Made by a program: the position numbers and the translations under genes
Notes under the pieces: model-generated
The model's database searches: none
Seen by the model: the letters and a program-made list of their open reading frames with translations, nothing else
What the model was told of the DNA's origin: nothing
Shown: positions 18,965-49,450 of the stretch, piece after piece
How positions within the stretch are numbered: the first letter of the stretch is position 1
Layout of the letters: each line of letters starts with the position of its first letter
NCBI GenBank assembly: GCA_000310025.1
Contig: FN649733.1
Location: 49,147 to 113,146, forward strand
Direction of reading: 5' to 3'
From: Ectocarpus siliculosus
Lineage: Eukaryota > Sar > Phaeophyceae > Ectocarpales > Ectocarpaceae
DNA: 64,000 nt

Positions 18965-19937
18965 CCCTGTATGCGGTCGAATGCTACATAAAACAGCGGT
19001 TTTAACACAGCATATGATACTAACTTTTGTCAGAGTTGTCTCGTTGCTCTTGGTAAATTGATGTAAAGAAGCTCAGAAAATATAGGGATAAAACCGAAGA
19101 GAGAACCTGTTACGCAGCCAGTACAGTAGTAGTACCCATTCAAGGTAAGACGACAATGATCAATACTCCGTTCGAAACGGATGCAGTGTGTGCGGTCTAC
19201 AGCAGCAGTATAATATTATAGACTCCGTATTTCGTCGCCACCAGATACATATAACGAAGAGGCAGGGATAAAGGTAGCAATCGATTTCATAGTGTTGCGG
19301 ACACTATCTCACCTACCTCTAGATTGATTCTACGATTCCCCGAGAAACATACAGCGATATCCCCCCTGTGGTTGACAAAGAGAGTTTGGCGCCATTCTTA
19401 AAGGAATAATAAATACACACTCAGAAAGACTACCCATCTACCCATTCTAGGTATTTTTTCGGTTTCGTCGTTTCTTCAAATTAAAATGAAACCGTCAAAT
19501 ATCCGAACCGGTGGCAAACGTACCGACTTCCGGTGCGCAAACCGCAAGTACAACCCTTCACACAAGAAGCCGTTCTCCGCATGCGGACACGTCTCTTCGC
19601 CTAGGATCTTCTGCATGCAGACTGGATCCGATCTTTTGTTTTCGTTTCCTTTCATACTCGGCGGAGACTGCGATTAAATATTCGTTTGATATCACACGCG
19701 GCCGTGGATACCGAGAGGAACTCAACCAGAGCCGGGAGGAGGGACATATCACACTCCCATCATACGCACCCAGCCAAAGCGACAGCCATCTTCACCGCTA
19801 CGGGTCTTCGGCAGGATCGACGTCAAGTTTGGTGTAATTGGGCAAAGACCATAACGCCTACATTATCCATCCGCGACCGACGCAGTTATCCTGTCGTGTT
19901 GAATACATCATTGACCGGCGGACCTTGCTGGGTGCCA

Positions 19938-22156
19938 AATGGCGCGTACAAGGGGCGGTGGCGTAGTGAGCGGCTCGTCTGCCCGGCCACGTCGGAGTTT
20001 TGGGAAAGCAAGGTGAGTGAGGCGGATTGGTTGTGCAATGGATGAAGATGGAGAAGCAGAGGCTCGACACATGAATATCCATGCTCACCCATGGTGTGGT
20101 ACTACAGAGTACTGCTGACAGTAGTACAACAGTACAGCAGCAGTACAGACAGCCCACGGCGGCTGCAGACCAGCATGGTAGAGGCGCCCGAGAGAGGCAG
20201 CAGTATTCAGATGCGAATGTATGAAACACGACCCTGCATGCAGAGCGTGACGACAGGACCGCCGATTTTCGTATTGCATGGCCCCCACCATTTCAATTCC
20301 ATGACGTTGCTGTTGCTCTAGAGTTCATCAAAGGTTTATCATCTATCTCCCGTCGATGGTTACATGTAGGGTGATGCGTCCCTATGTACGTACTGTTGGA
20401 GTATCGTTCTACTTCCCATGTCCTCATGACATCAGCGTCCCGTCATCCCGTCGGCCTACCATTTGTCCTGGTGCATCATGATAGTTTGGCAGGAAAAAGA
20501 GGGAGCGGTGTGGTCGCGCTTCCTGGGCAACCTCCCGGTGGAACGGCAGGAACAGAGACCGTGGCCGCCGCTCCACCGCCGTTTCCTGGCTCTGGCAGCA
20601 CCTTCGCGAGACTGGCAAGGGAACCCCTAACGCTGTCGCCAAGGCCTCTTGGTGCAGGAAACTACGTGAATTTTCGATCGCAGAATAATGGAAGCTTGGC
20701 GATGGGGGGCAGGGCGATGGGAAATGACTCAATGTCAACGGGCACAGGAGCAGCAGCTGGAGACCAAGACGGCGGTGGGGGTGGAGGTGGAGATGACGTT
20801 GGGGATGCTGATTTCCTTCAAGGGATATTTGATGAGGCCATCGGTCTGGACGATGTTATCGCTGACTCCATCAGCTGTTATCCCTCGGTCGATGACTACG
20901 AGGACAGCAGGTGCGTGCGTGTTTATACCTGACGAAGAGAAGCCGTACCCGTCATAAGCCAGCTTGCAACAGAGCACGATCCGCCGATGATGGTCTGTGT
21001 ACTATTGAACGTGCAAGTAACTGCAGGGGAGCCGCGGGCGGAGGTAGTGCATGTAGCCACGATTGACTACAAAGACCGCGTGCGTTGGTTTGAAACACAC
21101 CACTTTTCGTGTGTCCTGAAATCTTGAGCAGCTTCTCTGTTTGGACTTCTCCTGGTGTTTCTGTATTCCAGGGGAGGTGCGGACTGCAACACAAATCAGG
21201 ATGACTCCCAGCGGTGCGCTGCTGTGCGAAGGTCAACGCTTTCTCCCCCAAAGGTCCCCGTGTGGCGCATGCTGTACATCGATCCCGATGCGGCCGACCC
21301 GAAACATGTCGCAGAACTGTTGGAGAGTGCCGCTTCGCAGGCGCTCGGATGGGCTTGCGTGTTCGACGTGGCGACAGACATCGTGGAGGCGCTGGCAGAT
21401 CTTCGCGGAGACACCATGTCGGTATACCGGGGGGTCTTCATCAACGAGTCGCTGTTCCGCCACAAGAAGCTGAACCAAGGGAAAGCACCGGACAAATCGA
21501 TCTTGGGCAAGCACCTGTCCAAGTTTCTTCGGGAAGCCGGCATGTCGAGCGCCCGCATCATCCTGCTCGTGGCTGGCGACGTCGACTTCGACACAGCCGA
21601 CGCCGGATTGCACGGCCTGAGCGCGGTCTTGCGAAAACCCTTCACAAAGACGGGCTTGATGGATATCTTGCGCGGCCTGTATCTCAGCAACGAGCCGAGG
21701 TCTGGAGCTGCTGCGGCCCCGTTGTCAAACCCGGAACCCCTCGGCGTTCCGTTTCCTGGGCAGTACAGATCAAGGCCACCAGAGGGAGTTCCATTGGCGG
21801 CGGCCGCGGCCGTGGCGGCGGCGGCAGCAGCAGCAGCTGGAACCACTCCATCTACCATCCACATGGGCGCGCCCGGTCTAGCATCGTCTCAATACCCGGC
21901 ATGCTTGGGATTCACGCCGTTCACTCACCCAATGTTCAATCCGTATAACTTGCCTCTAGCCTTGCTTCGATCGGGGAAGCCAAAAGCGTGGCCCCGGAGA
22001 AGGTACACTAACATCGCCCCGAGGGAGAAAGATGAGGACCTTGGTGATCAGTCTGCCCCGGTGCTGGATGGCGCAAGTCCGGATGTCACGGCAGCAGCCG
22101 ATGAGTGTGGTGCTGCTGCAGCCGTCGCGGAACAGACAGCTGGGCAGGCGATCTAG
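19938..22156 (+). CDS. protein with degenerate response-regulator receiver domain (5' end uncertain)
   Basis: Two exons are solid: one ending at 20910 (…DDYEDS, phase 2) and 21172-22156 (327 codons plus stop), joining in frame. The last exon contains a receiver-like fold: strand 1 RMLYIDPD, strand 3 GVFINES (Asn where the phosphoryl-accepting Asp should be), strand 4 ARIILLVAGD and strand 5 AVLRKPFTK with the conserved Lys-Pro. It therefore resembles a pseudo-receiver that cannot be phosphorylated conventionally. An Ala run and an unrecognised C-terminal region follow. The upstream exon is Gly/Asp-rich with an acidic stretch. A likely earlier exon ends at 20012 (donor GTGAGT). In one frame it would start at ATG 19938 (phase 2) and in another it reads PCWVPNGAYKGRW (phase 0). 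Acceptors at 20598, 20683 and 20712 are possible, so I could not fix the junction. Function unknown. Confidence 0.6.
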
Positions 22157-23376
22157 CCACATAAGGTCAAGGGCTGGCAGGAGGCGTTGCCCCAGCAAGT
22201 GGTGTGGCTGTGCAATAGCTCAAGGTTTTCTGGTCAGTTCGGCATCATTGATAGATAGAGAGCTTCCAGGTGAACACCGCGCGCGAGGTTGGGCTTGACG
22301 GGCGCGGTTTGTCCAGTGCCTCGAGATAAGACTCTTGTATCGTCGCCAGGCAGCTGCTTAGCGCGGTCGACGTGACGTACATTGAGAAAGACCGACTGCG
22401 CGTTGGTACAGCAGTGGTTGTAGCATTGTTCAAGGCGTGGGAGCTAGACTATGCATGTGCGCGCGGGGGGGAATGGGGGACCTCAGCCCTACTTCACATG
22501 CGTTGCGATCGATGCGCTATTGTTGTACGCTGTTCGATGGTTAGACCCCCATTCAACAGGTTGGGCTTGGAATCTCCCGGCCGTTCCCGGTCTTGCGGTA
22601 GGGTAGCCCCAATGGACCGAGTGCCAAGGCTGGGGGTAGAGTATGCCTACCAGCAGAGGGTCAATTCAGACATTTTTTCGCTTCTCTAACATGTAGAACG
22701 CGTGGTGTTCATTCTCAGCGCTGGAAGCGGCATGACCGATTTGCTATCACACAGCCGTCTAAGGACAAAAACGAACACGTACACGAGGTGACAATACCCG
22801 CACTTAATATCCACATGAGGGGGGTCGGTCCATATACGTGTCGAGGACTGTGCCATTGAGGTCCTGCCACTGCTTCCAGTCGACCTGAACGTCTCGCACT
22901 TACGGCACACTTTCACACCTTGGCCAACAACTGATAACAACTACGCGCGAAATGCCACCAAGTTTTGAACCTATGCATATGTACACAATCTGTTCTGCAC
23001 TACAACCCCGGCAGAGCACCCATGAACCCGTTCCAAGTGTAATACGCTCCAGTACGAGGGAAAAATTCAACGCGGCGTTGGCAACCGGGCAACTGCGGTT
23101 TGATCAACGTCGGTTGTCTCATTATTAAAAAAAACTAATAAAGTTCTAACACTCAACGAACGGTTAAGGTTCGCAAGCGTAACAACAGCAACACCCACGG
23201 TTACAGCGGAAATAGACAAACGCCATGGATGTTTGATGTGGTTCGCCTAACCTTGATGGTAACTCAGGGCTTCAAGACCTACAACCGCAACAGCCCATCA
23301 AAAAGGTGACAGCCACTGTAACTCCGAAGTCTCGAACGGACGAGCACGACAAGTGACCGTGAAACGCGAGCGGCGA
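22157..23376. other. convergent intergenic region
   Basis: Between the stops of the receiver-like gene (+) and a small gene (-). It contains TATGCATA near 22973. Reading frames are short and show no recognisable domain. Confidence 0.5.
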
Positions 23377-24011
23377 TCAAAGGTCAAGGAAGCCACTTGC
23401 TGGAGTTACGGCAGGGTCGCTTTGCCCCGCTGCAGCCGCCTCACTGTTGGCGCCATGTACGCTGTCCGAGCCGAGCGAGGATTGATTCCACGCAACGGGA
23501 TCCGGAACCGGCGCTGTCGCTGCAGCCGTAGCCGTAGCCGTGGCCGGGCTGCTGCTGCTGCTGCTGCTGTGACCTCCGCTGTCGCTACCATTGCTTAAAT
23601 GGGGTGTACGACTGCACATGTCGGGCGGCGATATCCCCTGCCCCTGGTGAAGGTACCACGCTCCCTTCGGGCGCAAGTTGTCGATGCCGATCGGCGGTGA
23701 GTCTCCCTGGCCGCAGAAGAAGTCCGGGTGCTCGATCGACAGCCTCTGCTCGTGGACCCACCTCTCGTCCTCCCCGTTGCTACCTGGCTCCGTCTTCACG
23801 GCGCTCCTCTGGCCTTGCCGGTCATGATCGAACGCGATTTGGAAGATCCCGCTGCGGTTCATCTGCCCGACGGAGGCAGTTGATTGGGGGGATAGACAAA
23901 GATCCTAATGTGTTAGAATTCAAACATCATGCCGGGCAACAATAATGGCGATTGTGTGTTGCTGATAGCAGTGACGTACCGTTGGTTTAAAAGTTCGTAG
24001 TCGTCGCTCAT
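23377..24011 (-). CDS. hypothetical protein, two exons
   Basis: Exon 1 24011-23980 (ATG, 10 codons, donor GTACGT) and exon 2 23851-23377 join in phase 2 to about 168 residues. An alternative acceptor 12 bases upstream would put a stop in frame. I recognise no family. The first 60 residues are mixed and charged (IFQIAFDHDRQGQ…). The rest is Ser-rich, with (CAG/CTG)n-encoded Ser and an Ala-Thr stretch, and ends ASGFLDL. Upstream exons may be missing because the first exon is very short. Confidence 0.4.
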
Positions 24012-25372
24012 GGTAGGATAGAAACGTACACTTGTCGACAAACCAAGCCAACTGCTGCTTGATAGCTCTCGGTGTGCTGCTTGTGGCCAACGGCTCTGCC
24101 GTCTTTCTGAGGAGACGAGACCGTAACCGCAGTTGGAGTGGGAGGGAGGAAACACGTTTCATGCATCTTGTGCGTACGGTAGCTGGTTGCGGATCGTGAT
24201 GAATGCGAAACACGAAATAGAAAGGAAATGATTGGGTGGAAGCAGAGAGAGACAAGCATCGCACTGCGAGTTGAGAAAGAGCCCAAGGGCCAACAGAAAA
24301 ACGAATCGCGAGATTACGCACTTGCTCGTGTATCTTTATCTATATTCGCAGTTGCTGATGCTCCCTCCCATCTCAAGCGTTTCAAGAAACTCTCCTGCTC
24401 TACAGCAGTGTCTTTGGAGAACTCGTTCACGAGGAGCGGATTGCTTTTGTGGCGCATCGTGGTACCCGGTAACCAGCACACGATGCGACGTGACTCTTCC
24501 GACGCACAAACGTCCAAGTCGAGTGGTCATGTTACAGTACGAGGAACCGCCGTGGTGAACGTGACGAGTCAATGCAATATCAAAACAGACGCTCAGTCAG
24601 TCGTCAGTCGTAGGGCTTCTCTCAACTCTAAACAAACAGGAACTCGCAATATCCTGTTCCCTGTTTCGTGTCTGTGTGCCTTAAGGAATGCTGTGAGAGG
24701 AACACCGGTGGCCAGAAATTCGTGTAGTGAAAGACTGCTTGCCAAGGAGATGACGTGTTGGTGAGTGCTGAGTGTCGTACGCCCTCTCGCTTGGCGTTTC
24801 TTTCTCTCGCTTGTGCTTCGAAGAGGGAACAGAAAAGCGCCGCTCGTCCAGCACCAACGCCGTGGGGGGACATAAAACTCTTGCGATCAACCATCGACTG
24901 CTTATAACAGAGTGTTTCGAAGCTCTGAAACTTTTATATATTGTATGATACGCATAAAAAGTAGCTTAACATGTACGTTAGTCCGGGAGTGGGGGTAGAT
25001 GGGTATGTAGATGGGTATATAGTCTCTCCGTAAAATTCAAACACAAATCGTTCACACTTCGTCTACAGCAGTACAGCAGTACATGACCAAAGTGGAATAC
25101 TGGGGATAATGAGTCAATTCGTTTTTGGTTATGCACTTCAGCCACTTGTTGGCCACCTATCAACTACAAAGTATGTACCCACACAGGCTGGTGCGCTGGT
25201 ACCACGTGTCACGAACGCATATGATACGGAGGCCGACTACGACTAAATAGCCAAGCGGACTGAGAGCAGTTCTCCCGCACCTCCACCTCTGCTCTACACC
25301 ATAATATTTGCTGCTTTTACTCCCCTACGATCGACAATACATGTTATACATCATCATGAGAAAAGCACCAGG
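24012..25372. other. intergenic region, no supported gene
   Basis: A 178-codon frame on + at 24228-24764 has no domain and ordinary intergenic composition. Two adjoining ACAGCAGT words lie at 25069-25084. Nothing else stands out. Confidence 0.5.
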
Positions 25373-26092
25373 TTAGCACCAGGGTAAAGACTGGTGCCGC
25401 TTGCTCACCTCGCGCACGACCTCGCCCTTGACCCACACCTTCTCCCAGGTGCCTCTCAGCGACACGTCCCCCAAGACAGACACGAAATCTCCGACCTTGA
25501 CACTCTTCCGAAGCTCACGCAAGACGACGCCGAAGCTCGTCTTCCTCTTCTTCGCCACCGGCTTCTCCGCGGTACTGGCCTGCTTCTTCCCCTGCGCAGG
25601 CCGCGGAGCGGGGTTATGCTGCCGCTTGGGTGACTTGCTCTTCGGCGGCGGGGCCTGCTTCGCGGGGGCGGTTTCTTCGTCTGCTACCTCTTTCGTCTGC
25701 TGAGTGTCTCTGCTGGCCGCTGCCGGCGTGCTGCCATTAGCTGGCTCGCTTGTGGTGGCCGGTGTTGTAATGTTGGCGGGCTTCTTCGAGCTCTTCTTGG
25801 CTGACACAGCCTTCGCCCGAGAACCGTTGACAGGAACTCGTGACATGTTGGTAGGGCCATTGCCTTGGGGACCACCAGCAGCGGCGAAGCTTGCAGTTTC
25901 GCCACCGCCACTACCACCGCTGGTAGGTGCGGTAGCCGCCTCTGTCGTTTGTTGCGCTCTCTGGCTGAAGAGGGTCGATAGCACCGTTTTGAGTTGATCA
26001 CCTTGGAGACCTTCATACGCGATGTTGTTCGCCAAAGCGTGCTTTACGGCCAGAATGTCATCCTGGATCACCTCGAGCTTAGACTTCTCCAT
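25373..26092 (-). CDS. lysine-rich protein with possible Tudor-like C-terminus
   Basis: Single open frame of 239 residues starting at ATG 26092. Residues 1-50 look helical (EVIQDDILAVKHALANN). The middle is Ala/Thr/Pro/Lys-rich with basic clusters such as AKKSSKK and KKRKTSF that could act as nuclear signals. Residues 195-230 (VKVGDFVSVLGD…GTWEKVWVKGEVV) have the look of a small Tudor-like beta barrel, but this is pattern only. A good donor (GAG|GTGAGC at 25409/25408, phase 0) lies near the 3' end, so the true gene may splice on to an exon I did not find, making the last 11 residues spurious. A nuclear or chromatin role is a guess. Confidence 0.6.
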   Translation of the reverse strand: MEKSKLEVIQDDILAVKHALANNIAYEGLQGDQLKTVLSTLFSQRAQQTTEAATAPTSGGSGGGETASFAAAGGPQGNGPTNMSRVPVNGSRAKAVSAKKSSKKPANITTPATTSEPANGSTPAAASRDTQQTKEVADEETAPAKQAPPPKSKSPKRQHNPAPRPAQGKKQASTAEKPVAKKRKTSFGVVLRELRKSVKVGDFVSVLGDVSLRGTWEKVWVKGEVVREVSKRHQSLPWC

Positions 26093-27433
26093 TGCATACC
26101 CCTATCTGTCTTGGACAGATACGCCCCGCATATACATCGCATCCCAGCGGCGACAAGGGCAGGGGCCCTTCTGCTGTAGATATACGTTCCGCGGTGGGGG
26201 GGGGGGGGGGGGGTCATACGTGGTTGTATGCGGTGTGTGTGCTTCAAAGGTATGTAGCTTATGATAGGTCACTTGCATACATAAGACACCACACGATTTT
26301 CAAAGCTCCATTACTCCACGACGGAGAGGATACTGAAATCAAAGGATACGCTGTCGGAAAGGTCTCGACGAGACGGTCCCAACGCCGCCCCATTTTCGGC
26401 ACCGTCACTGCTTTTCCTGCCGAGTAATCGAGTTTCGAAAATCGGCGGTTGCGATATCTTATGCAACCTACGGTGTGCGTGCTATGCATGCATGCAACAT
26501 GCATACCACGCACGGGCGATGATAACATGATAGACCATGATACCGCTGCCTGCCCGCTCTGCAAGTCTGTTCACTGCAAGTAAGTCTGTTCATAAAATAT
26601 GCCGACCTAACAGACAGAGATACTATACAATAGCTCTTTGTTACAGTATTGTTTGGCAGGCAGGCAGGGTCGCTTTCGTTGGGTGTTTGGCTAACGGACG
26701 GATGATCCTGGCGGTTTTGCCACACCACCCAACAGAGAAAATCAATCTGTCAGGAGGTTGAGGTATCTACCGAAAAAAATTGTGGTTCACAAGTCTGTAC
26801 CTGCTGAGTGGGGATCGTTCGCGAGAGACGTCCAGATACCAGATATATATTATATACTGCTGTACATTTCAATTATGCATGTAGACCTATGTGTTTTTTA
26901 GTGGAAATACGGAAGTGTACGCGGATCTGAAGCATGCCCGCACAGCATGTTTTCATTCGAAGCGCACGTTTGGTATGCTGGGCGTGCTCAAGGTAGGTGT
27001 AACACAATCATGTAAGGTTTCATAGGCGTTTTACAAAGCGTACTTCATGCACGGACGGGCATCCGCGCTCAGCAACACCGAGGAGCAATACCAATGGTAC
27101 ACGGCTAATCGTTGGCCTGTCGCCTGCATGATGCAGCAGTACAACACTCATTCTTCGGGGATCGTGAGTCCCGCCTGGAACACACAACGGAAGCACTATT
27201 GCAGGTGTCGCTTGGTAAGGAGGATTTCCTCTACCAAAAGTTACACCGCGTCAACCGCGACTAATAATTCATGATTAAGTTTGTCCAGCCATGATCATCT
27301 TACAACGTTCCGTGCAAGCCGTGACCCCTCCCCCGGCTACTGCTGTATCTTCAACCATGCGTTGACGATGTTGTGAGGTCGCACAAACAACCACAACCCT
27401 AACCATATCGCAACTTTCCTATCCTATCCTATT
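26093..27433. other. intergenic region with MITE copy and an orphan exon-like block
   Basis: Includes a poly-G run (26191-26213), the inverted-repeat element at 26275-26464, and a stretch 26902-26992 bounded by a good acceptor (TTTTTTAG) and donor (AAG|GTAGGT). Two of its frames on + are open, but it connects to nothing I recognise. Confidence 0.45.
26275..26464 (+). mobile_element. short inverted-repeat element (MITE-like), copy 2
   Basis: The left end (GCATACATAAGACACCACAC, then GATTTTCAAAGCTC) is mirrored at the right end (CGAGTTTCGAAAATCGGC, then GATATCTTATGC). The element is about 190 bp. Its interior shares CGGAAAG.TCTCG.CGAGACGG with copy 3 (37349-37541), in the same order. Non-coding. 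Confidence 0.7.
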
Positions 27434-30400: not shown

Positions 30401-31138
30401 TCTGTATGGAAGACGAGAGTCACCAGCACCGTGCGGAACAGCAATCAGTTGATTACACCCGCTATACGTATCTGGCGTTGTTCTGACAGCCCGCGGAGCG
30501 TGGATGATCATGATTCCCACCGATTCTGCTGCACAGCTGCACTCCTGCGACTGCTGCTCCCATGGTAGCGATATGGTAGTCCCCAAACACAAGACAAAGT
30601 TCTTCGCCTCACTGGTCACTGGTGTAGCCACGACCCCGTGGTGCATGTCAAAGAAACAGATAAAATCTACCGCACCAGTAGACTACTTGCTGTACAGCAG
30701 TTCACGCACGGCGGCAGACAACGAGTCCATCCATGTACAGCAGTACCAATGGCATGGTGTCGTCAAGAAACAGGACCGCTCGGCGGTTCAAAAATTTGAA
30801 AAGTCCGAACTTCGAACTACTGCTGTAAGCTGAGATTGCCGCAATGCTACCTCATTATTCCACTGCCTGTTTCAAAAAGCTCTCTCTCACGAGCAGGTGT
30901 TCGGTTGCATGCCACACACACGAGCCTCACGAGCAATTCCACAGAGGGCTTGAAGCAAACGTGCAACGTCAATGTTCTCACCGGGAAAGCGCATGAAGCA
31001 GGCGTCGTGACCAGCCTGCTTGAGACTCTCCACCAACAAATTCGCCTGCGTCGTTTTCCCGCACCTATCCACGCCCTCGAATAGAATGAACGCTCCCCTT
31101 TTTGCGGGCCCAGCAGTCGCGTCTTTGGTGCTCGCCAT
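27434..31138 (-). CDS. TMPK: thymidylate kinase (dTMP kinase)
   Basis: Exons 31138-30982, 30401-30293, 29910-29819, 29310-29216, 28257-28168, 27577-27434 join in frame through phases 1, 2, 1, 0, 0 to 228 residues, normal length. The enzyme phosphorylates dTMP to dTDP for dTTP synthesis. Motifs: P-loop [11 protein letters not shown] (residues 20-30), RFPDRTT with GHMINGFL, the DRY motif (105-107) followed by [21 protein letters not shown], the LID-like [15 protein letters not shown] (152-166) and the C-terminal WQLIDANR helix. The chosen ATG at 31138 has context GTCATGG. The frame stays open upstream to about 31330 and encodes a hydrophobic stretch followed by an Arg/Ser-rich stretch, but lacks an ATG. 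A longer, targeted form with an upstream exon is therefore possible. Intron 2 of the genomic order (28258-29215) has a tandem repeat. Confidence 0.95.
28821..28952. repeat. tandem duplication, two 66-bp units
   Basis: The word CCATACAATCTCAAG and the following TTAGGAGACGAT block appear twice, 66 bases apart, in the thymidylate kinase intron 28258-29215. The unit is AT-rich. Confidence 0.9.
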
Positions 31139-31584
31139 GACAGCAGCAGACCCGGTTCTGGTTGCCGCGGGCAAGGATCCGTTGCTTCGTGGAACGAAGG
31201 CGGTCCTCGGTAACGACGGTGACCGTGACAATCGTGCCGCGGACGCGAAGCAGACTCGACAGCCGAGCAGCAACGCCGTGATTGAGATGATGGCTCGAAG
31301 AATATTGACTTCGGTATCAACGTATCCCAACCTGGTGTGTGTGTGCGGGATAGCGACGCCCTCACTACACTGCTGCTGCCGGACGTGCAGCGACCCAAGG
31401 GCGGGGGATACGCGAATGAACTTCCTTTTCCCGCCGCTTCAGGGAGCTCCGCAGATTCATTTTTGAAATTCTCATGGTTGATTTGAAGCAGGAAGTGTGT
31501 CCCCTCTATGCCGTTGCCTGTGCGCTCTGTCGTCTACGTGTGCCTATTCGTCTGCGTGTGCCTGTGTGGGTGCGTGGGCGAGAC
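31139..31584. promoter_or_regulatory. shared divergent promoter region, thymidylate kinase / SAS-6
   Basis: Only 446 bases separate the two start codons, transcribed in opposite directions. If the upstream open stretch of thymidylate kinase is coding, the spacer shrinks to about 250. I see no clear TATA box. An E2F-type site (TTTSGCGC) is not obvious by eye. Shared regulation is inferred from the arrangement. Confidence 0.5.
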
Positions 31585-36579: not shown

Positions 36580-36960
36580 GGGGGGGGGGGGGGGGGGGAA
36601 TTTTAAACGGAGGAGAGGATTAANNNNNNNNNNNNNNNNNNNNNNNNNNNNNNNNNNNNNNNNNNNNNNNNNNNNNNNNNNNNNNNNNNNNNNNNNNNNN
36701 NNNNNNNNNNNNNNNNNNNNNNNCGTTTTTCAATTTAGGGGGGGGGGGGATGACAAACAACGGGTTTTTTTATTCCCCTTGGGAGTTTTCATTGGGACAG
36801 GGGGTTACTCCGGTGGGTCCCCGTTATGAAGGACTTCCCAAGTAAAATACCCCCCCAGGATTTTTGATTCAGGAGTGTAGAGCCATTATGTTTTTGTGGG
36901 GGGGGGGAGTTGGTTCATTCATTTTTTTTTTTGGGGGGGGGGGGGGGGGTGGAGGAATTC
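36580..36960. other. 100-N assembly gap with duplicated noisy flank
   Basis: N bases occupy 36624-36723. Sequence right of the gap (36740-36960) is a corrupted copy of 36385-36600: GATGACAAACAACG, GGAGTTTTCA, TTATGAA, GTGTAGAG and the terminal G run recur in the same order with homopolymer errors. It is best explained as a low-quality read tail placed beyond the gap, not a real repeat. Confidence 0.9.
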
Positions 36961-37740: not shown

Positions 37741-40700
37741 ATGGCTTCGAGAGGAGTGCTGCTGGCATTGCTGCCCGCTGCTTGCTTTGGCTTTGCTCCC
37801 GCGGTGACGACAAGGGTGGGAGGATGTAGTGGTGGCATGTCAGCAACGAGCGCACCAACCGGCTTCGCAGGGTGAGTAAGCGGAAGCGTAATACACACTC
37901 CAGGACACGCCTGGCAACGGCCTGTAGCCGGCCGTAGCTGCAAGAGGCCTCGTCACTATCGTAGGGATGTTGTCTCTCGATCTCAGATCATGGTCAGGTC
38001 GAAGGTTTCGGGAGCAACAGAGGTGACATGCGGATGATGTCGATCATGAACGCGCCGTTGGTCAGCTCGTATGCTCGTATGCTACCAGGCTCCCCCATCC
38101 TGGACGTACGCAAGCCCGCCTGGTTTTGGGGCTGAGTTGAGTGTCCACTGCAACACGCACAGCAAGCAGCTGGGCTTCTCTGCCACCACGAACACCTCGC
38201 CAGTCGGTGTTGTGTTACATGTCGCTGACACATCAAGGGCAGAGGGCTCACCTGTGTACAACCAACTGCGGTCTGTAGGTACATTATGTAGATAGCATAT
38301 CAACGCCTCTTCACCCTGATGTCCGACATACTATAGACTACATTGTATTCCATACCTGTGAAGCAGTTGTAGCTGGGTGTCCACAGCAGTCTATCGTTGG
38401 AGACAGGCCTTATCTCACAGACAGCGGCGGTTAACATCATAGCACTGTAGTCATGACACACACACACACATATGCGTCTCCTAAGGGTGCATGGGCGATA
38501 CAGAAGGCGTGACACGCAACAAGCAGGCCTGGCTCAGCTGCTCGCTACAAAAGCTTACATACGTAAACCATGCATGCCAAAAACATAATAGCAGTGAGGG
38601 AAGCAGGGAAGGGGCAACATGTTTCTCCGGACAGACAGAACAGCATGAGTACCTGTAACTGGGTGTGTATCTAACTTGCCACATTTTTCAAGGCATCCAG
38701 GTCCCTACGTCGTCAATATCCCCGTTTGTAGGTTATTGATCGGTCTGTTTGACCCAAACCTCCCAATAGCAGTTCACCTCCAGCACACCGTGGTAGCACA
38801 CGATGAAATCATGGATCGCTCTGCTCGCGTCTCTATGCCGCACAAGGTCGGCGGTGCAAGCGTTGGCGCGTTCTCGCACAACGAGACGCAGCGAGGGGCG
38901 TGGGTTGCGTATGGCCGGCGATGGGCCAAGCGTGCTGGAGGAGCAGCCTGTATCGGCAGACGAGGCAATCGCTTTGATCGACAAGGCCAAGACCATCGTA
39001 GAAGCTGACATGGGCGTGAAGGTGCGTGGTCTCCGTCATGTTACCCTTACGGCGGGGCAACGGGGGTGCTTTTACCAGGATGTCTCTCTCTGTGCGGCAG
39101 TATCATACGGCATGCTGTTGGCGTATGGCCGCGTACTAACCGTCGCTGGCGCGTAGCATGGTATAATGCTTCTCTGGCGGCAGCGCGGCTGGTTTGCTAC
39201 ATACATCGGACAACAAAAATGTGGCAACCGTCCATGTTGTCCGTGAAGCTTGTGACGACCACAGCCATCGCCATATAAGCCCTAGCAACGCAAGCTACAG
39301 GCTGCGCGCGACGTGCAATCGGTGCCCTGCAACCTGCATGTACGTACATTTACTGCTCAAAAGCAATAGCACCCACTATTAATACTATATTAGTGTACTT
39401 GCGCCAATGCCAACGTCTGCCAACACCCTCGTACATGCCCACGAGTTTCCAGGAACACCGTGCACCCCGCACGGTGTCCATCACAATGCGCATCGTGGTC
39501 TGGAATTTTCTGATGGCACTTGGTCTTCGATTTCTAGCAAGGTGTGGCCTACGGAAGGCTTCGGCGTCAGTCGGACCAGTACTAGACTATACGGATATTT
39601 AGAACGTACTAAGCGGGGACCGGAACGGTTTTTTAATGTCAATGCAACAACCACAACAACAACTTGGTACCAAACAGGTGGCGGATATGCTCGGGCCGGA
39701 CTTTCGGTTCTTGTGGCAATTTAACGGGGACATGGCCAGGGCCGACTACCTGACGGAAGGAACGGGACCGTACGCTACCTTGAGGACGGCTTTGCCCGAC
39801 CTCTTCTGGAACTCGTACGATTACAGGGTGAGGGGTTGCGCCGCCGTTAAGTTGCTACTCGTAGTGGCGGTGAAACGGCACCGTACTCAGTACCCAATGC
39901 CAGCAAGGTGTTGAATGCCGTTGTGCAACGTTATTAATAGTAGTACGGGTGAAAATCCGTCCTCACGAACAACCCGACTGACTATCAACGTGGAGTGAAG
40001 TGAACTGTAGTATTCCCACTGCATTGTTGTGACGTCGTCAGTCGTGTGTGTTGCGACACGTTCCTTCGATGTCGCCCTTGCTTGGGCCCTGTACAAGCGT
40101 CAGCGTAGGCAAAAGAATTGGCATTACACCGACCCACCCCCATGTTGTGTTGTGTTGTGATGTCGAAGGCTACTCTTATGCATATGCATACAACAGTGTG
40201 ATAACACCAATCCGCATTGCCTGAGCCCAGTCACGACCTGTTTTTTCTCGACGCTGTTCACTCGTTCTGCAACACGCAGCGTATGTTGCACGTCGGGATA
40301 CACCTCGTATCCACCCCTTCCGCTCCACATGCTGTCTATCCTGTTGACGTCATTGCGTGACGTATGATACATGATAGGTGGACAAGTACAACCGCAACCG
40401 TGTTTGGGCGACGACCCGACTCACGGGGACTCACAACGGACCCCTGGTCTTCGACGGGAAGGTAATACTAGTAATACTGCGGTAGCATGCATGCAGCATG
40501 CGTGCATACAAGTGACAGCAATTGGTTGATTGAGATGGACGCCCGAAGGCCAACTGCATGGGGACTTGGGGGTGCGGTGGTGTTTGTTGAGACCATGGAT
40601 TCTCGCGCGTTCGTCAATGCGTCCTCTCGTGTAGCGCGCTCTGTCGCCAATACAGGCACCGTCGATCACTGCTGGTCACAAAATACTCGTGCCAAAAGTC

Positions 40701-43700
40701 CTAAAAAATAGTCGTTTGCCGTTGTCTGGTTCTGCCACGCCGTTTGCCATGCCCTTGTGCCAAGGCAAAGGCCTGGGCTGTGGGAAAGGTACGCCTTCCA
40801 CTCCGGTTGTCCGTTTCGACTACTGACTAGTGACGCAGTACATGTGGCGATGACGGGCGAGACCGTGCCATCGATCATGATCGGGAATAAAGCAGCGCGT
40901 GCCCCCTGTTTCGTGACATCACAGTCTAGACTTGAAATTATCAAATGCCACCGATGCCCCCACACGCACGCATGTATAATCAACCACATGTGGCGTCACG
41001 ATAATAATCGATCACATGCATGTGACGTCACCAGGAGTACCCCCCCAGTGGCATCCGCGTGGAGGCGGCGCCGGAGTGCGTATCGGTGACTTTCGACGAG
41101 AAGTCGGGCCTAGCCACCAAGATCACGGGAGGGTTCTGCATCGACAGGGGGGTCGGGAACACGGGGCCGGCGGGAGGGATCTGGGGAGTTTTGCAGGCAA
41201 GAAGAGCCACAGGCTGCTGATGTTTGCTTTTTTTTTGTTTTTCCACCACAAGTGGTCGTTTTCGATACGACGGCGACCTGGTTGCACCCAAGTTTGAGAC
41301 AGCGAGGGGACTGAATTTGCTAAAATCTGTTCTGTTTTTGTATCTCTGGGTTTTTTGCATTGCCAAATCAGCTGTGGGCAGCGTTGGTGTCGTCCTTTTG
41401 CCCTCGCCGGTAGGAGGCCCCATGCAACATGCCAACCCTGGAGACCCTGGAACCCCGGAAGTCCTGCCAAAAGAAAAACATGAACGAAACGACCAAAATA
41501 AAGTTCTGACGAGTAAGTCTTGGGCGTTCGCCCGGACGCAACTGATAGCTTGTGTGTAGATATAGTATTCGACTTGATCTACACATCATACACTTAATAT
41601 TCAACGCGTTGCAAGTATGATGGTATGATGACATGGTATATCGAATGTTGAACCACAGGCTTGATCGTGTCGCTTGCAATGTTTTTGCACCTCAAGCAGA
41701 GACGTCTACTATGGATTGCATCTGATCTGTCTGTGTTTATCTGGATTCCCATGCTTCTGTACAGTCGTCCAGTGTCGCGTTTATATATGGAGGCGTTCAA
41801 GAGTTGCGAAGTAGACCCCAAACCAATGCTTTACGTATGTATGTACTTTCTCTGTCTCATACGTGTGTAGCGTTATGTGTGCACGACCACTTAACCGTGT
41901 CCGATGCCTTCGGCGATGGTTTTTTCGAAATCTTGAGCGTTTTTTGGGTTTAAAAGCCTTTACCAGGTATTTATTGATTTTTTTCGCGCATTTCCTTGCA
42001 TGGGCCAACGACCGGGAAAATATCAGTCGGCCCAATAATGGCCGTACTTTGCCCCGTTTCGGCGAGGGTACATTGACAACAAACACAACACACACAATTC
42101 TCAAGAAACATCCACAAATCGGGGATATTTCGGCTTGATTTTTGAATTGAAAAAACTTGTTTTTTTCTGGTTCGTTGTCGGTAGAGCATCCTCTGCACCT
42201 TTTCTTGCAACGAACCCAAGTTCATAACCATCGCCATCGCCACTACCGTTTCACCTCCAAAACTTCTCGCCAATATCGCTACAGACTTATGGGACAGAGG
42301 AAGTATGTGGTAGTTGTTTTAATGTTTAGATGCTTCGTTTGACGTTGCCTGGTTCTTCAATGTTTCCGATGCCCCCGACTTGTACAAGTACTTATTTTGC
42401 AAACGCTTCTTGTATGTATCAATTCCTTGTTTCCCACGGGGGTATCAGACTCCTTCACGTTGTCCATTTCACAACTCGAGGCGATTTGTGCAGTCGTACA
42501 ACCATTTGTTGATTCTTGTCAGTCACATCGCATGATGCGTTCATTCCCATCTCAGTACAAGTGTATTCGAGTGCCGGGAGAAAGACATGCGTCCACGGCC
42601 TAAAAGGCGTGTTTCTCTTCTCAAGGGAGTAGTTCACGCGGCATTTCTCTTCGGGCCACAGTTCGACATTCCCAAACATTACCAGTTATCGGAGCATGTG
42701 TTAAGAGTTAAGAGGGGCATCTTGACAACGTTAACATTAACATTGTTTGTCAGCGGGTTAGGGAAATTGTCACCTTTCGAGCGTTGCTGGAGGTCGCGGG
42801 AGCTTCAGATGCTTCTCGGAGTGTTCTTGGAGCGGGATTATTTGCAAATATCGTAGATCACAAAAACCTAGCCTGCTGCTGTATCCAGCGTACACAACGG
42901 AATATCTTGTGGATCGATCCATCGCATGACCCATGAAACGATCGACAAATGCCTAGCCTACTGATGCATCCAACGCAAATAACAAAATACCTCGTGGGTC
43001 TTCGATCAATGACATGATCCATGACATGACACTGCTGTATGACATGACATGACATGGCATGACATGACAGGCAATCGGAGAGCCAGTGTCGGCGTGGAAG
43101 TACTTCCCCCCCGTCAAGGTGCTTGTTGACGTGCTGGGCCCCACCTTCCGCCCTAAGGGCAGCCAGGGCAAGGCCAAGGCGCCCTACAGAGACTCTGTCG
43201 CCATCGCCCTCGCCAAGCAGGTATGGGATGGGATGGGATGGGATGGAGGTATGGTATGGTGTAGTATGGCTTAGTATGGTATGGTATGACGGTATGGCAC
43301 GTGGTATGGTATTGAATGGTATGGTATTGGGTGGTACAGCAAACAGCGTGCCTGTTTTGTTTTTGGCACCCCGTGCTCTTGTAAGCCATAATGGTGGTCG
43401 AGTAGATTATGTTGTGCGGGGTCGAGAACCTTCACTTCACGCCTCGCAAGGGGGTTGATCGCAACACGTTGTGTTAAGTTGCTCAAGCGCCCTCGAGGCA
43501 GTTACGCAGTGCTCATGACGGCCTCTGGAAGCGAAAGCACCAGAAAATATATAAAGTCATGCGCAGCTGTCATCCGTATGCAAGGAAGTAGGCACAAGAT
43601 GCCGAACACCCTTAGCATAATGCAGCGCACCTTCCATGCGACTCGCCGAATGCCTCACGGCGCTTCGCGCTTGGTGATATGAGAGCCTGGTCCGGCGAAA

Positions 43701-46700
43701 ACCCGGCTTATCGATCCGTCCTGGCATTCGCAGGGACGCGAGGTCAATGGTCTAACAACTACGGCATGCGTTTACATGAGAAATACACCCCCCCTACCGT
43801 GCTTCTCTCTGCTGCGATGGCTTGGTTTTGGTGTTACGAAGTCTGCATACCACACCTAAGAAAAAATGGGGTATTAGTAGTGTTTTCTTAGGGAGGACGA
43901 GGACGGCAGTTTTGATCATAATTCTGTTTCTGCGTGTGTGTTTTTCGTGGCGCGTCAATCGTATGCATACACAACTCGAGAGTAGTTAGATGCCCCGAAA
44001 AGGCCTTAAACAGTTCGGCCACTATTCTTAGCTGAAGGCCGTCTCAGCAACCTACATGTGTGTTACTGGTGCACAACCTCGCTCTGCCGTTGGTCGTGTT
44101 TGTTCATCCCGTGCCTCCTGCCCAACGCTTGTCAGCATCTCACTGCTGATGCTTTCTTCTCCTCTTCTACGACGCCAAGAATCTACGCTGATGCAGGATG
44201 ACATCTTTTGATGTTGGTATGGTGTTGTAACGATAACTGACGCTACAATCTGCTGTACCCACCGATTGATGTGATTGGATGGCACGATGGCAGGTGCTGA
44301 CGGCATTGAGGGACGACACTGGTGCGTTGGCCGATCTTCTAGCGGACGATTGCATGATATACGCGCCCATTCTCGGCCCCCTCAAGAAAAAAGAGGTGAC
44401 TCACTCATCATGACACGTGACACTCATCATGACACTCATCATTGGATCATCGAGTTAACCTGATGGCTTGTATGCAGATGCGTACCACGCTGCTGTTTTG
44501 GCGTTGTTGCGGTGGGTGTTGTTTTTGATGGTGTTGTCGGTGTCGCTTTTGTTAGCGTTTGTCCAGATGCCGCTGCCTGGAAAAACGGTGCCCCTGTCGT
44601 TTCTTGACGCCGTGCATGCATGAGGAGTCCCTTCCCAAGCCTGAAGGAACGCGATATGAAAAAAAAAAACGAGCTTGGGACTAGCAACGCCGACGATGTT
44701 CGTCGGGGTGCTTTAACGATGGTGTTGCAGTATTGGTGTTGGTGTTCATGGTGCTGTCTTGCGTTGTTGCTGTTTGTTGCTGTTTGTTGGAGGAGTTGGT
44801 GTTGCCGTGCCCCAGCTGAGCTTTCGGTTGTCCCCAGGCATTCTACAGTGGCCGTGCAAGCACTATGTGGCCTATTGCGCGTACCCCCCTCGCCTCATCT
44901 CGCCTTAACTTTCTTCCTTCCTTCCCATGCCATCCCAACACCGCACTACCTTATCCACTGTACCACGCCACAGATCGTGCAGAGCGCGACCGTAGATCTC
45001 GTAGATTTCTTCTCGGGGCTGGACACGGATGACAACTACCACGACGCCAGGGTGGACCCTTTCGAGCCGTCAAGGGTGTGGATCACTACGATACCGACTA
45101 CAAAGGTGGTGGGGGCTACGACGTGCTTCGGGACTAAGGTAAGGGAACGGTGCGGTGAAGGCCATCGTGTCGTGTCGTGCTTTTCGAGTGTGCGGTGCGA
45201 GGTGTTTCGTGTGGTGCTTTTCGAGTCGACACATAGCAGCGGCTGTGTGCTGTCGTTCGTTGCGAAGGTGTACGGTAGACGCGAACGTATATATTTCTCG
45301 TGCTTCGACGCCAAGGTCAGGTCAGGAAGGAAGTCGTCTCAGCATACAATATGCGTAGCTGTTTCGCATGTTCAACAGCTTCATTTCTCGTCTTCGTTTT
45401 CAAGCTCCCTCTCTGTTCTCCTCTCCTCTCTCTCCTCGCTTGTGCTTGATGTTGGTGTTGGGGGTTGGGGTGCGTGCGGCTCTTGTCTCGCCTTAGTCTT
45501 TCCTTCTTCGCGCCGGAGACGTGTTTCGTTTCCTCGTACCGTCTATACGCATTTCTGATTCACTGATACAGAATTGATACAAACTAATACAACAACTGAC
45601 CCAGCTATGCATGCCTCTTGTCTTTGTCTTGGGACGTGACATGACCTGACGCGACGTGATGTGATGTGCGGCAGTTTGAGCCGAAGAGGCAGTCGTTCGT
45701 GAGCACGCCCCAGACCTTTTCCGTTACCTTCGACAGCGATGGCTTCGCCTCCAAGATTACGGTGAGAAATTAGGACGTGTACTTCCTACGGTAAGTACTG
45801 TACTGCTTTAACGCCATGTACATGGTGTAGAGGATGCGCGTGCCGGTATCGCGGCGAAGGTGGTCGTCTCGTGTACATGTTGTAGTGTACAAGGACAACG
45901 GTAGTTTATTTGCAAAGGTGTCATGTGAGAGAGGTTCATGAACATTCTCAACTCGGTTTCTTTTGTTAGGTGTTGCTTGTTTTGTCCGATTTTGCGGCAG
46001 CATGTGCCAAAATGCCTGCTCGATCAATGTGCCGTTGTCATTACCATCAAACTGGCAAAGTTTCATGATTGTGACTTATGATCGGCATGTTGCCCTCGAG
46101 CCGAGCTCTGAGACACACGTGTGTTGTGTCGTCATATTTTCGTATCGAATCGATCGGTGTACAGTGGAGACAGACATCACTGCAGCATGCGCTCCCCTGC
46201 GATGGATAAGAATGAGATGACCTCGGAATCAGGAACACAGATGGATAGATGGGTGTGACATGATTGTGTTGGATTAAAATGATCTAGACGAGTCGAGAGA
46301 AAAGCTACGGTACGTCGGAGAACGACAGCTAGGCTAGAAGACGCGAACGACTTTAACCGAAGGAAGAGATAGTCGCTACACCCAAGTCGGAGAATGAAAT
46401 GATGACCGCTATGCTGGAAAATACGCAGCAGTCACGATTTGATTTTTTCCAAGAGGATAAGGCAAGCTTTTTCTTCTCATGTTAGATGTGGTATGCATGG
46501 AGACGTTGCAAGAGCGCCCGATCAGAGGTACACAGTGTCTCCGTGTGGACCAAATTATGTTGCGTATTGAACGGTCAAGCGGCACCCCCCCTCGACCCTT
46601 TCCCCCCCACACACAGCTTGGCTGCCCAATGGATACCGAAGTCGGCGACACGGAAGGGCTGACGAACTTCCAGGGTATTCTGGCAGGACTAGGCATCCCT

Positions 46701-49450
46701 CTCCCCGACCCGTTTGGCCGCCCGGCCCCCGATTCGTTCAGAAGGGTCTTGTCTTCCGTGTTCCCCAAGAAAAAGCCAGCACCGCCTGCCGTGAAGAAGT
46801 CCAAGCCCGCCAAGCCCGCCGCTGCTAAGCCTGCCGCCCCCGTCAAGAAGCCCGCACCGCCTGCTTCGAAGACTGGTGCGAAGAAGGCTGCACCGGCGAG
46901 GCCTGTCGCTAAGCCCGGCATGCTGAAAATGCCTACCGCCATGCCTGCGAAGAAGACCGCGTCGCCTGCGAAGAAGAAGCCGGTTCCGGCTAAGCCCGCC
47001 GCGAAAAAGCCTGCCATGCTGAAGAAACCCGCCATGCCGCCCGCCAAGAAACCCGCCCCGGCGGCCGCCAAGTCTGCCGCACAAAAGCCCGCCGCCGCAC
47101 CAAAGGCGAAGCCTGCCACGCCGCCAAAGAAAGCGGCGGCACCTGCGGCGGTGGCCGCTAGCAAGGCGCCGGCAGCGGCGAAGGGCGGCGGCGGGTCATC
47201 ATTCGGAGGGATGTTCAACTTCGGCGGCGGCGGCGGGTCGGGGGGGGGGGGCGCAGGAGGCGCTAAGACAGAGGCGGTAGCGACGAAGGCGAAGAAGGAG
47301 GCGCCCAAGCCGGCGGCGCCTAAGAAGGTGGCTGCTCCCAAGAAGGCGGCTGCCCCGAAAAAGGCGGCCGCTCCCCAAAAGGCGGCGGGTCCCGCGAAGC
47401 AGGTGCGTCTTCGTCATCTTGTCTTCCTCCACTTGTGCTGCTGGTGTACTTTACTTTATATACCGTACACCACGATGCCATCGTACCATACATGTAAAGC
47501 TGCTGCAGCGTTTGTTGCTTTGGCTAGATGCGATGGCGGTGTTTTGGATGATGTCCGTCGTGGTGGCCGTCTCCGGCTCTTTTGTGTACTTGCCAACCAT
47601 GGCATCGTGTTACAGTAGTAGCGTTTCACAACTCGCACCAACCGTCGAGTGTTGTTGTGTCTCCGCGTAGTACAGTTTGCCACCGGCTGATATCGGAGGC
47701 GTAGAAGATGCGGTACAGGCACTCATTCGTTCGGCGGTGTGTTCTTGTGTGATGTGATACATGCACATGCACATGTACATCTGGTGTGTGTGGTCGAGGA
47801 TGAAGCACTTGTTTACGAGGAGAAAGTTCTCGTTTGTTTGTTTCTGTCTTGTGCCTGAGTTTCTTGGGGGCCATTTGTCTGCTTGGCGGCACCGCAATAT
47901 TGTAGCTAGCCGTGTTTTGGTGGCGCTGCGTTCGCCGGATTTTCTCGATGGGTACGGGGCGTGGATGGTATCGTTGGACCTTGTGCCGAACGTATCGCTG
48001 GTTACTTTACGCTTGGTTGTCTTACGTGCCTTCGTGATTCGTGATGTTGACACTTACACTTCGCGAAAAGAGGACAAGTAGCGTGGCTCCGACTGCTGCA
48101 TCGTGCAATTCGTTTCCTTGAACAAGCGTGCCGATTGAGATGATTGGTATTTTTTTTCTGAAGGAAGCATGCAGAAATTTGGAGATCCGACTACCTGCGT
48201 TACTCCAGGACTTGTCCCTTTTCGATGGTTGTGTTCCCAACAACTCTCTCCTCTCTCTCTCTGTGTGTCTCTGTCTCTGTTTGTCTTTGCCTCTCTGCCT
48301 CTTTGTCTGTCTCTTTACCCCTCTCACGCACACGGATCTATCGTATCGTATCGTATCTATCGGCACACAGGCAAAACCGGCTCCGGCCGCTGCGAAAGCG
48401 ACGGGGAGCGTGACCTTCTCCCCTGTCTTGGCACAGAAGCTCGAGGAGGCGTTGGGCTCTGCCTCCAAGGTAGATCAGCTCTCCAAACGGACAGAACTCT
48501 TCGCCAGGGGCGGTATCTCCGCAATGGACTACTGGTCCACACTCAAGAATGTAAGTGCCCGGCCCATGGTTGTGTTTGTCTCTCTTAAGCGGGAGGTGAA
48601 GTGGCAGGGGATGTCATGATGATGTAACCGCCGTTGACACAAGTCCCTACATGGGACGATTGGGGCCATCGCCACCCTCCCCAGGGGGAAGAATCCATGG
48701 AAATATCCCCCATGTTTTGTTGTTGTGGTATGGTTGGGCGGACCTCGATGAAAGCATAAACATGTTGTATCTTGCGTCACGCGCAGGGCACACGGTACGT
48801 TGCTTTTCGTTTTGATGCTCACTCTAACGTCGATGTTTCTTGCGTTCGACTTCTCTGACACCTTCGGTGTGGTGTGGCGTGGCATGGTATGGCGATTTTT
48901 CTCTGTCTTGGAGGCACAGTAGTACTCTGCTATAGTCACCTGCTATAGTCACCTGCAAGCCTTTTACCGTCGGGTGAAAACATCGTGGTCTTGTCTTCAA
49001 TTTTTTGGTAAACATATTTTGCCCGCCGTCATGTCCTCAGAAAGACCGCGCGCACGCCGTGTTTGTGGGTCTTCTAAACCTAAAGGCAATTTGAAGGCTA
49101 CATACACGATTATTATTTAAAGCATTGATTGGTTTACTCGTCGTTCAAGCCAAAGGTCCCCACAAAGGGCTTGGCTAGACAGACCGCCCTGCCTGCAGCC
49201 TGACCTTAACCACAAACACACCAGAGCTCGTTCGTAGCGAGGCTTTTGAACTAATTCGAGTGAACCAACCCCCTTTGCCTTTGTCGTTGCCGCTCACTGA
49301 CCTCATTGGTTGGAAACCTTACATGTTCGTCTCTTGTGGATGCAGACGCTTGGTCCTGACGGAGTGCAGAACCTCGGGCCAGACATAATCGGTGCGCTGC
49401 CGTCGGGTAACCAGAAGAGCGCCATCTTTAAGCTCTACTCCACTAGCTAA
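37741..49450 (+). CDS. plastid-targeted protein with tandem NTF2/SnoaL-like modules and Lys/Pro/Ala-rich linker
   Basis: Twelve exons: 37741-37871, 38892-39021, 39678-39827, 40378-40461, 41035-41196, 43071-43220, 44294-44395, 44974-45138, 45675-45761, 46617-47402, 48371-48550, 49346-49450. All join in frame, giving 743 residues. Residues 1-20 are a signal peptide ending ACFG|FAP, a heterokont plastid signal. Module A (about 60-265) has PDFRFLWQFNGD, NRVWATTRLTG and VSVTFDEKSGLATKIT. Module B (about 270-435) repeats the pattern with SRVWITTIPTT and FSVTFDSDGFASKIT. Both resemble the NTF2/SnoaL-like cone fold; that assignment is by pattern, not search. Residues 436-650 are Lys/Pro/Ala-rich with a Gly-rich insert and look histone H1-like in composition. 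The last 90 residues (LAQKLEEALGSASKVDQL … KSAIFKLYSTS) are ordinary folded-type sequence. No catalytic role can be assigned. Intron 5 appears to use a GC donor. Confidence 0.85.
43221..43337 (+). repeat. GGGAT/GGTAT pentanucleotide repeat at start of an intron
   Basis: Starts exactly at the donor of exon 6 of the tandem NTF2-like gene (GTATGGGATGGGATGGGATG) and drifts into GGTAT units over about 115 bases. The sense strand is G/T-rich and nearly free of C. Confidence 0.85.

What the first reader, a model, noticed from the sequence alone, without database searches (positions are those of the whole stretch)
37741..49450. Plastid-targeted tandem NTF2-like protein with histone-H1-like linker
The combination of a heterokont plastid presequence, two diverged NTF2/SnoaL-like modules, about 200 residues of Lys/Pro/Ala repeats and a separate C-terminal region is not an architecture I recognise. 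The basic linker could bind nucleic acid, membranes or acidic polymers inside the plastid. It is the best candidate here for an undescribed system.
Basis: partly seen in the sequence, partly recalled or inferred. Interest (0 to 1): 0.78.

Follow-up and report, generated by a model that had tools for sequence, protein, structure and literature searches.

The report
Algal plastid protein, flexible charged arm
A single intron-rich algal gene encodes a protein probably sent to the plastid, with two related folded domains, a long flexible positively charged arm and a small helical tail; the combination is unusual and its job is unknown, with a tethering or scaffold role the best guess.

Summary
One coherent 12-exon gene model (37741-49450, + strand, 743 aa) joins an ASAFAP-type N-terminus, two homologous modules, a 223-residue Lys/Pro/Ala arm and a C-terminal region. 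GC3 of the exons is 0.75, intron GC 0.50. The modules are an internal duplication (BLASTP E 6e-17). Module 1 resembles SnoaL-like ester cyclases (0 of 500 shuffles reach its score); module 2 alone (31 of 500) and the two-row profile do not stand out. Pfam, NCBIfam, PHROGs and PDB sequence searches gave no SnoaL/NTF2 match. A second gene (C306) has a similar arm with Phe-Gly patches and PAH-like domains, though genome-wide searches did not link the two tails. 'Histone-H1-like' is loose: presumed H1 tails of this genome have about twice the charge density. Best guess: a plastid tether or adaptor. Location, transcript and fold remain untested.

The parts
37741..37871 (+). exon A: N-terminal presequence (MASRGVLLALLPAACFG/FAP...), ends phase 2
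   Evidence: model; motif control; rule set post hoc
38892..39021 (+). exon B: end of presequence and first part of module 1; alternative acceptor at 38847, alternative start ATG within the same frame upstream
39678..39827 (+). exon C: module 1
40378..40461 (+). exon D: module 1, contains the RLTGTHNGP stretch that aligns with SnoaL-like ester cyclases
41035..41196 (+). exon E: module 1, followed by a GC-AG intron; two strands predicted at low confidence (mean pLDDT 50.8)
43071..43220 (+). exon F: end of module 1, connector, start of module 2
44294..44395 (+). exon G: module 2
44974..45138 (+). exon H: module 2
45675..45761 (+). exon I: module 2
46617..47402 (+). exon J: end of module 2 (50 residues), then Lys/Pro/Ala arm from 46767
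47184..47261 (+). Gly-rich patch with SSFGGMFNFGGGGG inside the arm; the 3 Phe of the arm lie here (2 of 5000 shuffles as extreme; rule set post hoc)
48371..48550 (+). exon K: last 11 residues of the arm, then first part of the PAH_ZNF598-like domain (three helices predicted, mean pLDDT 74.8, single sequence)
49346..49450 (+). exon L: end of the PAH_ZNF598-like domain and stop codon

Best explanation
Shown: one gene model codes for two homologous modules of about 185 residues (aligned over 157), a 223-residue low-complexity cationic arm with one Phe-Gly patch, and a C-terminal helical domain of PAH_ZNF598 type. Inferred: the protein is imported into the plastid and works there as a non-catalytic tether or adaptor. 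The paired SnoaL-like modules are the head that binds a small ligand or a protein surface, the arm is a flexible spacer that can also hold polyanions (nucleic acid, acidic protein surfaces, anionic thylakoid lipid), and the PAH-like tail docks on a partner helix. The C306 gene, with a longer arm, several Phe-Gly patches and two PAH-like domains, would be a related scaffold in the same cell.
For: Coherent gene model. Modules duplicate, acidic (pI 4.94 and 4.63) beside an arm of pI 11.34. SnoaL-like profile score of module 1. PAH-like tail: 25.7 bits isolated; pairwise BLASTP E 2e-12 to the second C306 PAH and 6e-9 to the first (single-comparison E-values), the first scoring 45.5 bits for PF23202; exon K predicted as three helices. 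Phe in Gly-rich patches in both arms beyond shuffles. On C3, PAH-like domains lie near EH domains, which are adaptor-type domains (recalled); that they belong to one gene is inferred.
Against: No function, partner, location or expression was tested. The adaptor role is by analogy of domain types. PF23202 is below its cut-off when the whole protein is scanned (20.4), and exon K alone reaches only 17.2 bits, E 0.93, in the genome search, where 2 of 14 control genomes also ring below the cut-off. Genome searches with the window tail found only itself (2 of 2), and searches with the two C306 domains listed no place in the window gene (4 and 2 matches). Module 2 does not score as SnoaL-like by itself, nor does the two-row profile (20.5; two of 60 shuffles are higher). 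The heads could be active enzymes; catalytic residues could not be assigned because the spliced modules were not folded here. The 5' end of the C306 gene was not found, so its location is unknown.
Confidence: 0.4

Rival explanations
1. Plastid nucleoid or RNA-binding protein: the basic arm binds plastid DNA or RNA much as a histone H1 tail does, and the folded parts organise or regulate the nucleoid.
For: Net +49 arm with 50 K to 1 R; a plant plastid precedent exists, SWIB-4, which has a histone H1 motif and induces compaction of nucleoids (PMC4154389, passages read).
Against: Charge density is about half that of presumed H1 tails of the same genome (0.22 against 0.33-0.42 per residue; those tails were picked by a rule that asks for at least 20% K); [ST]PKK motif count is 0; no DNA-binding fold by Pfam; a third of the arm is Ala and it carries a Gly/Phe patch.
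Confidence: 0.2
2. Tandem SnoaL-like enzyme (cyclase, isomerase or hydrolase of a plastid metabolite); arm and tail only place the enzyme.
For: Module 1 matches ester cyclases, best over RTALPDLFWNSYDYR...TGTHNGP; a relaxed alignment extends over residues 2-161.
Against: Only weak similarity (probability 33%); outside the core the alignment is at low confidence; module 2 is more diverged; Pfam and NCBIfam assign neither module to an enzyme family.
Confidence: 0.17
3. Rubisco or pyrenoid condensate linker: sticker-and-spacer arm plus folded heads gather a stromal enzyme.
For: Arm with a Phe-Gly patch here and several in C306; plastid-type presequence.
Against: Only one patch in the window protein; three paper searches on pyrenoids returned 0, 1 and 2 papers, seen as listings, none about such a protein by its title; whether this alga has a pyrenoid is unknown.
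Confidence: 0.1
4. Gene-model artefact: the presequence exon belongs to another transcript, or J-L belong to a separate gene.
For: Two possible acceptors for exon B and an alternative start in exon B; exon A has the lowest GC3, 0.54.
Against: Junctions from B on are phase 0 with GT/GC-AG sites; module 2 runs straight into the arm inside exon J and the arm continues over the J-K intron into the tail; GC3 is 0.68-0.85 in exons B to L.
Confidence: 0.1

Closest known systems
SnoaL-like / ester cyclase branch of the NTF2-like superfamily
   Same: Module 1 aligns with a profile of 11 bacterial and archaeal proteins (10 annotated ester cyclase, 1 hypothetical); 0 of 500 shuffles reach its score.
   Different: No match in Pfam or NCBIfam; tandem; GNTGPAGG loop before the last helix-like stretch; arm and tail are foreign to the family (recalled).
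PAH_ZNF598 domain (PF23202)
   Same: C-terminal residues match; above cut-off when isolated; helices predicted.
   Different: ZNF598 itself is a ubiquitin ligase (recalled); here the domain ends a protein with a plastid-type presequence in which Pfam finds no RING or zinc finger.
C306 gene of the same genome (unnamed)
   Same: Lys/Pro/Ala-rich arm with Phe-Gly patches followed by PAH-like domains; shared RT.L.ARGGI.A..Y motif.
   Different: Two PAH-like domains, arm of lower charge (0.10 per residue), no SnoaL-like module seen by eye in the part read; 5' end open.
Histone H1 tails and the plastid nucleoid protein SWIB-4
   Same: Lys almost without Arg, Ala- and Pro-rich low-complexity composition.
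   Different: About half the charge density of presumed H1 tails of this genome; Pfam finds no H1 or SWIB domain.

Membership tests
SnoaL / NTF2-like superfamily | Sequence profile match over curated threshold | tested here: not met
   Pfam, NCBIfam and PHROGs list no family for either module at E up to 10 (HMMER filters drop most matches above 0.1); no PDB sequence match; SnoaL_2 and SnoaL_4 searches of the genome do not list these exons
SnoaL / NTF2-like superfamily | Remote profile similarity beyond chance in the right register | tested here: inconclusive
   Module 1 alone: hhalign score 28.3, probability 33%, 0 of 500 shuffles as high (met). Module 2 alone: 31 of 500 as high (not met). Two-row profile of both: score 20.5, two of 60 shuffles higher (not met)
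SnoaL / NTF2-like superfamily | Cone-shaped alpha+beta fold | tested here: inconclusive
PAH_ZNF598 (PF23202) | Score over the Pfam cut-off of 25 bits | tested here: inconclusive
   25.7 bits for the isolated 93 aa, 20.4 bits in the whole protein; exon K alone 17.2 bits, E 0.93, in the genome search
PAH_ZNF598 (PF23202) | Homology to a clear member | tested here: met
   Pairwise E 6e-9 to the first C306 PAH (45.5 bits) and 2e-12 to the second (26.5 bits), single-comparison E-values; genome-wide searches did not join them
Linker histone H1 | Globular winged-helix H1 domain | tested here: not met
   No PF00538 in the protein; the genome's 9 listed PF00538 matches at E up to 0.1 do not include this gene
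Linker histone H1 | Tail charge density like H1 tails of the same genome | tested here: not met
   0.22 net per residue against 0.41 to 0.42 in 4 of 5 stretches near PF00538 matches and 0.33 in the fifth; 6 loci looked at, 5 gave a stretch
Heterokont plastid-imported proteins | Signal peptide followed by ASAFAP-type motif with F at +1 | tested here: met
   ACFG/FAP after a hydrophobic core; rule of my own set post hoc, 1 of 648 frames; no trained predictor was available. The motif as a plastid criterion: PMC5462543, one passage read
Heterokont plastid-imported proteins | Plastid location of the protein | not testable with these tools
   needs tagging or organelle proteomics

The most novel reading that the evidence does not exclude
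An undescribed algal family of plastid scaffold proteins, of which this gene and C306 are two members, in which Lys/Pro/Ala arms with Phe-Gly patches join ligand-binding heads to PAH-like docking tails and gather a stromal body such as the nucleoid or the pyrenoid.
Probability: 0.14. Interest if true: 0.75.

Novelty: new variant of a known kind. Interest (0 to 1): 0.4.

Why it matters
If the protein is in the plastid, it would be a nucleus-encoded candidate for what organises nucleic acid or enzymes in complex plastids, a field with few known architectural proteins outside green plants (recalled). It also places a PAH_ZNF598-type domain, known by name from ribosome quality control (recalled), in a presumed organelle protein, and gives a second gene (C306) with which to test the idea.

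Tried and rejected
Sequence searches for relatives of the modules led nowhere: Pfam, NCBIfam and PHROGs, PDB by sequence and by two-row profile, tblastn on plasmids (5 and 4 records, best E 4 and 0.4, none labelled NTF2 or SnoaL), genome contigs and viral contigs with the module alignment (178 and 86 pattern matches, none confirmed; the patterns that the tool chose were not from the stretch that I think most telling). No paralogue of the modules was listed in the own genome (9 of 9 matches lie in this gene). The genome's 3 SnoaL_2 matches, all below the cut-off, lie on other contigs; one (L023) looks like an ordinary small SnoaL-type exon by eye.

PDB matches of the tail (best E 0.91, best E 0.012 to REV1 and 0.046 to FliG) were judged chance. 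The D/E and H/I introns fall within one codon of each other in the module alignment (by eye), but with four introns per module I estimate (no call) about one chance in four, so I do not use it. The hhalign test is insensitive: a SnoaL_2-like exon of this genome, meant as positive control, reached a probability of only 0.99%. In the same call the two-row profile of the modules (score 20.5) did not stand out: two of 60 column shuffles were higher. Scripts did not pick up H1 tails (search rule too strict); one search did, for 5 of 6 loci (L042 gave none; L045 and L046 carry the same sequence), as stretches with at least 20% K, so this yardstick is selected for K and the joins to the H1 domain were not verified.

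Literature: ten searches in an open-licence library listed no paper that by its title describes such a protein; most subscription papers are missing there. Passages read: PMC4949667 (it lists an Ectocarpus 'NTF2-like domain' protein of 28 kDa, too small for the whole of this one; its sequence was not compared), PMC4154389, PMC5462543. All others were seen as listings only.

Full report
What is there. Twelve exons on the + strand, from ATG 37741 to the stop ending at 49450, give 743 residues. Ten of eleven introns are GT-AG and one is GC-AG; every intron from B/C on is phase 0. The coding model is supported by third-position GC of 0.75 against a GC of 0.50 for the introns; 1000 random concatenations of intron pieces never exceed 0.60 in their best frame. 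Exon A is the least certain (GC3 0.54): two acceptors for exon B are possible and exon B holds its own upstream ATG in frame. The gene lies in a 189.5 Mb, 492-contig genome held as G000. That it is an ochrophyte, perhaps a brown alga, is inference from the presequence, gene structure and genome size; it was not tested.

Presequence. MASRGVLLALLPAACFG/FAP has a hydrophobic core, then F at the presumed +1 and P at +3, the ASAFAP pattern that PMC5462543 gives as consistent with plastid targeting in ochrophytes (one passage read). Under a rule that I wrote after seeing it, 1 of 648 ATG frames in the window passes, and it is this one; Markov sequences give 0.12 per window. This supports plastid import but does not show it.

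Modules. Residues about 60-247 and 254-437 are homologous (49 of 157 identities, E 6e-17) and acidic. The NTF2/SnoaL label was put to several tests. Against it: no family listed at E up to 10 in Pfam, NCBIfam or PHROGs, none in PDB sequences, no NTF2-labelled record in tblastn of plasmids; module 2 alone does not pass the profile test (31 of 500 shuffles as high), and neither does the two-row profile of both modules (score 20.5; two of 60 shuffles higher). For it: hhalign of module 1 against 11 bacterial and archaeal proteins (10 labelled ester cyclase, one 'hypothetical protein') scores 28.3 (probability 33%); 0 of 500 shuffles reach it, the best shuffle being 24.2; the main alignment covers YATLRTALPDLFWNSYDYR to SGIRV, and a relaxed, low-confidence alignment runs over residues 2-161 of the module. 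I conclude that module 1 is probably SnoaL-like and module 2 is so by descent.

Arm. Residues 438-660 are 22% K, 32% A, 18% P, with 1 R and 2 E, net +49. The same genome's linker-histone loci (9 PF00538 matches at E up to 0.1) offer a yardstick: K-rich stretches from 5 of the 6 loci fetched have net charge 0.33 to 0.42 per residue (four of the five at 0.41-0.42, two of these being the same sequence) and 32-43% K, against 0.22 and 22% here. These stretches were picked by a rule asking for at least 20% K, and their splicing to the H1 domain was not checked. With that caveat the arm is more a flexible Ala/Pro spacer with charge than an H1 tail. In its midst is a Gly-rich patch, SSFGGMFNFGGGGG; the 3 Phe of the arm lie in it (2 of 5000 shuffles as extreme, post hoc rule).

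Tail. Exon K is predicted as three helices, mean pLDDT 74.8. In the genome, PF23202 finds three places at E up to 10: C306 (32.3 bits, over the cut-off), C3 (22.9) and this gene (17.2, E 0.93, exon K only); 2 of 14 control genomes also ring below the cut-off. With exons joined by eye, C306 carries two such domains (45.5 and 26.5 bits) and C3 at least two (28.1, and 24.9 just below the cut-off). The window tail aligns pairwise with the second C306 domain at E 2e-12 and with the first at 6e-9 (single-comparison E-values). Genome-wide protein searches did not make that link: the window tail found only itself, and the two C306 domains found themselves and, for the second, C3.

A sister architecture. 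The C306 gene has, before its PAH-like domains, a Lys/Pro/Ala arm (404 residues taken; K 14%, net 0.10 per residue) with repeated patches such as SSMFDGLFGSGGGGG and SMFGGMLGGGG; 10 of its 14 Phe lie in Gly-rich surroundings (0 of 5000 shuffles). Its 5' end was not found; the contig end beyond it is a repeat, so its targeting is unknown, and no SnoaL-like module was seen by eye in the part read. The C3 stretch combines PAH-like domains with EH domains (35.1 and 35.3 bits, cut-off 22), probably in one gene of another kind.

How it may work. A folded, acidic double head, a long cationic and flexible arm and a helical docking tail suggest a tether. Which cargo the head holds, whether it keeps enzymatic activity, and which polyanion the arm touches are open. 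I hold the tether reading at 0.4, a nucleic-acid role at 0.2 (plastid SWIB-4 is a precedent, PMC4154389, passages read), an enzyme role at 0.17, and a pyrenoid-type linker at 0.1.

Novelty. The parts are of known kinds; the combination did not show up in the listings of ten literature searches of an open-licence library nor in the sequence collections searched, which hold no ochrophyte proteomes. Orthologues may well be present, unnamed, in published brown algal genomes. Hence 'new variant of a known kind', interest 0.4.

Noticed in passing
G000:C306:about 19260-26283 (L010, L015, L016): Gene on the - strand with Lys/Pro/Ala arm, several Phe-Gly patches and two PAH_ZNF598-like domains; 5' end not found before the contig end, which is a dispersed repeat.
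   Followed up: partly
G000:C3:3741001-3750000 (L017): Stretch with, on the - strand, EH domains and at least two PAH_ZNF598-like domains (one at 24.9 bits, just under the cut-off), probably one gene.
   Followed up: partly
window 9630-11264, - strand: Open frame with a basic, bZIP-like stretch (by eye) followed by a weak PAS match (18.9 bits, cut-off 22.6).
   Followed up: no
window 30890-31438, - strand: Exon of a thymidylate kinase (34.2 bits, cut-off 27).
   Followed up: no
window 11832-11931 and 36624-36723: Two runs of exactly 100 N, gaps or withheld stretches.
   Followed up: no
window 41197-43070; C306 intron after the second PAH exon: Both this gene and, by eye, C306 use a GC-AG intron (donors GCAAGA and GCAAGT).
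   Followed up: no
G000:C241:281668-281835 and 296233-296400: Two linker-histone loci about 14.5 kb apart on opposite strands with identical Lys-rich stretches.
   Followed up: no
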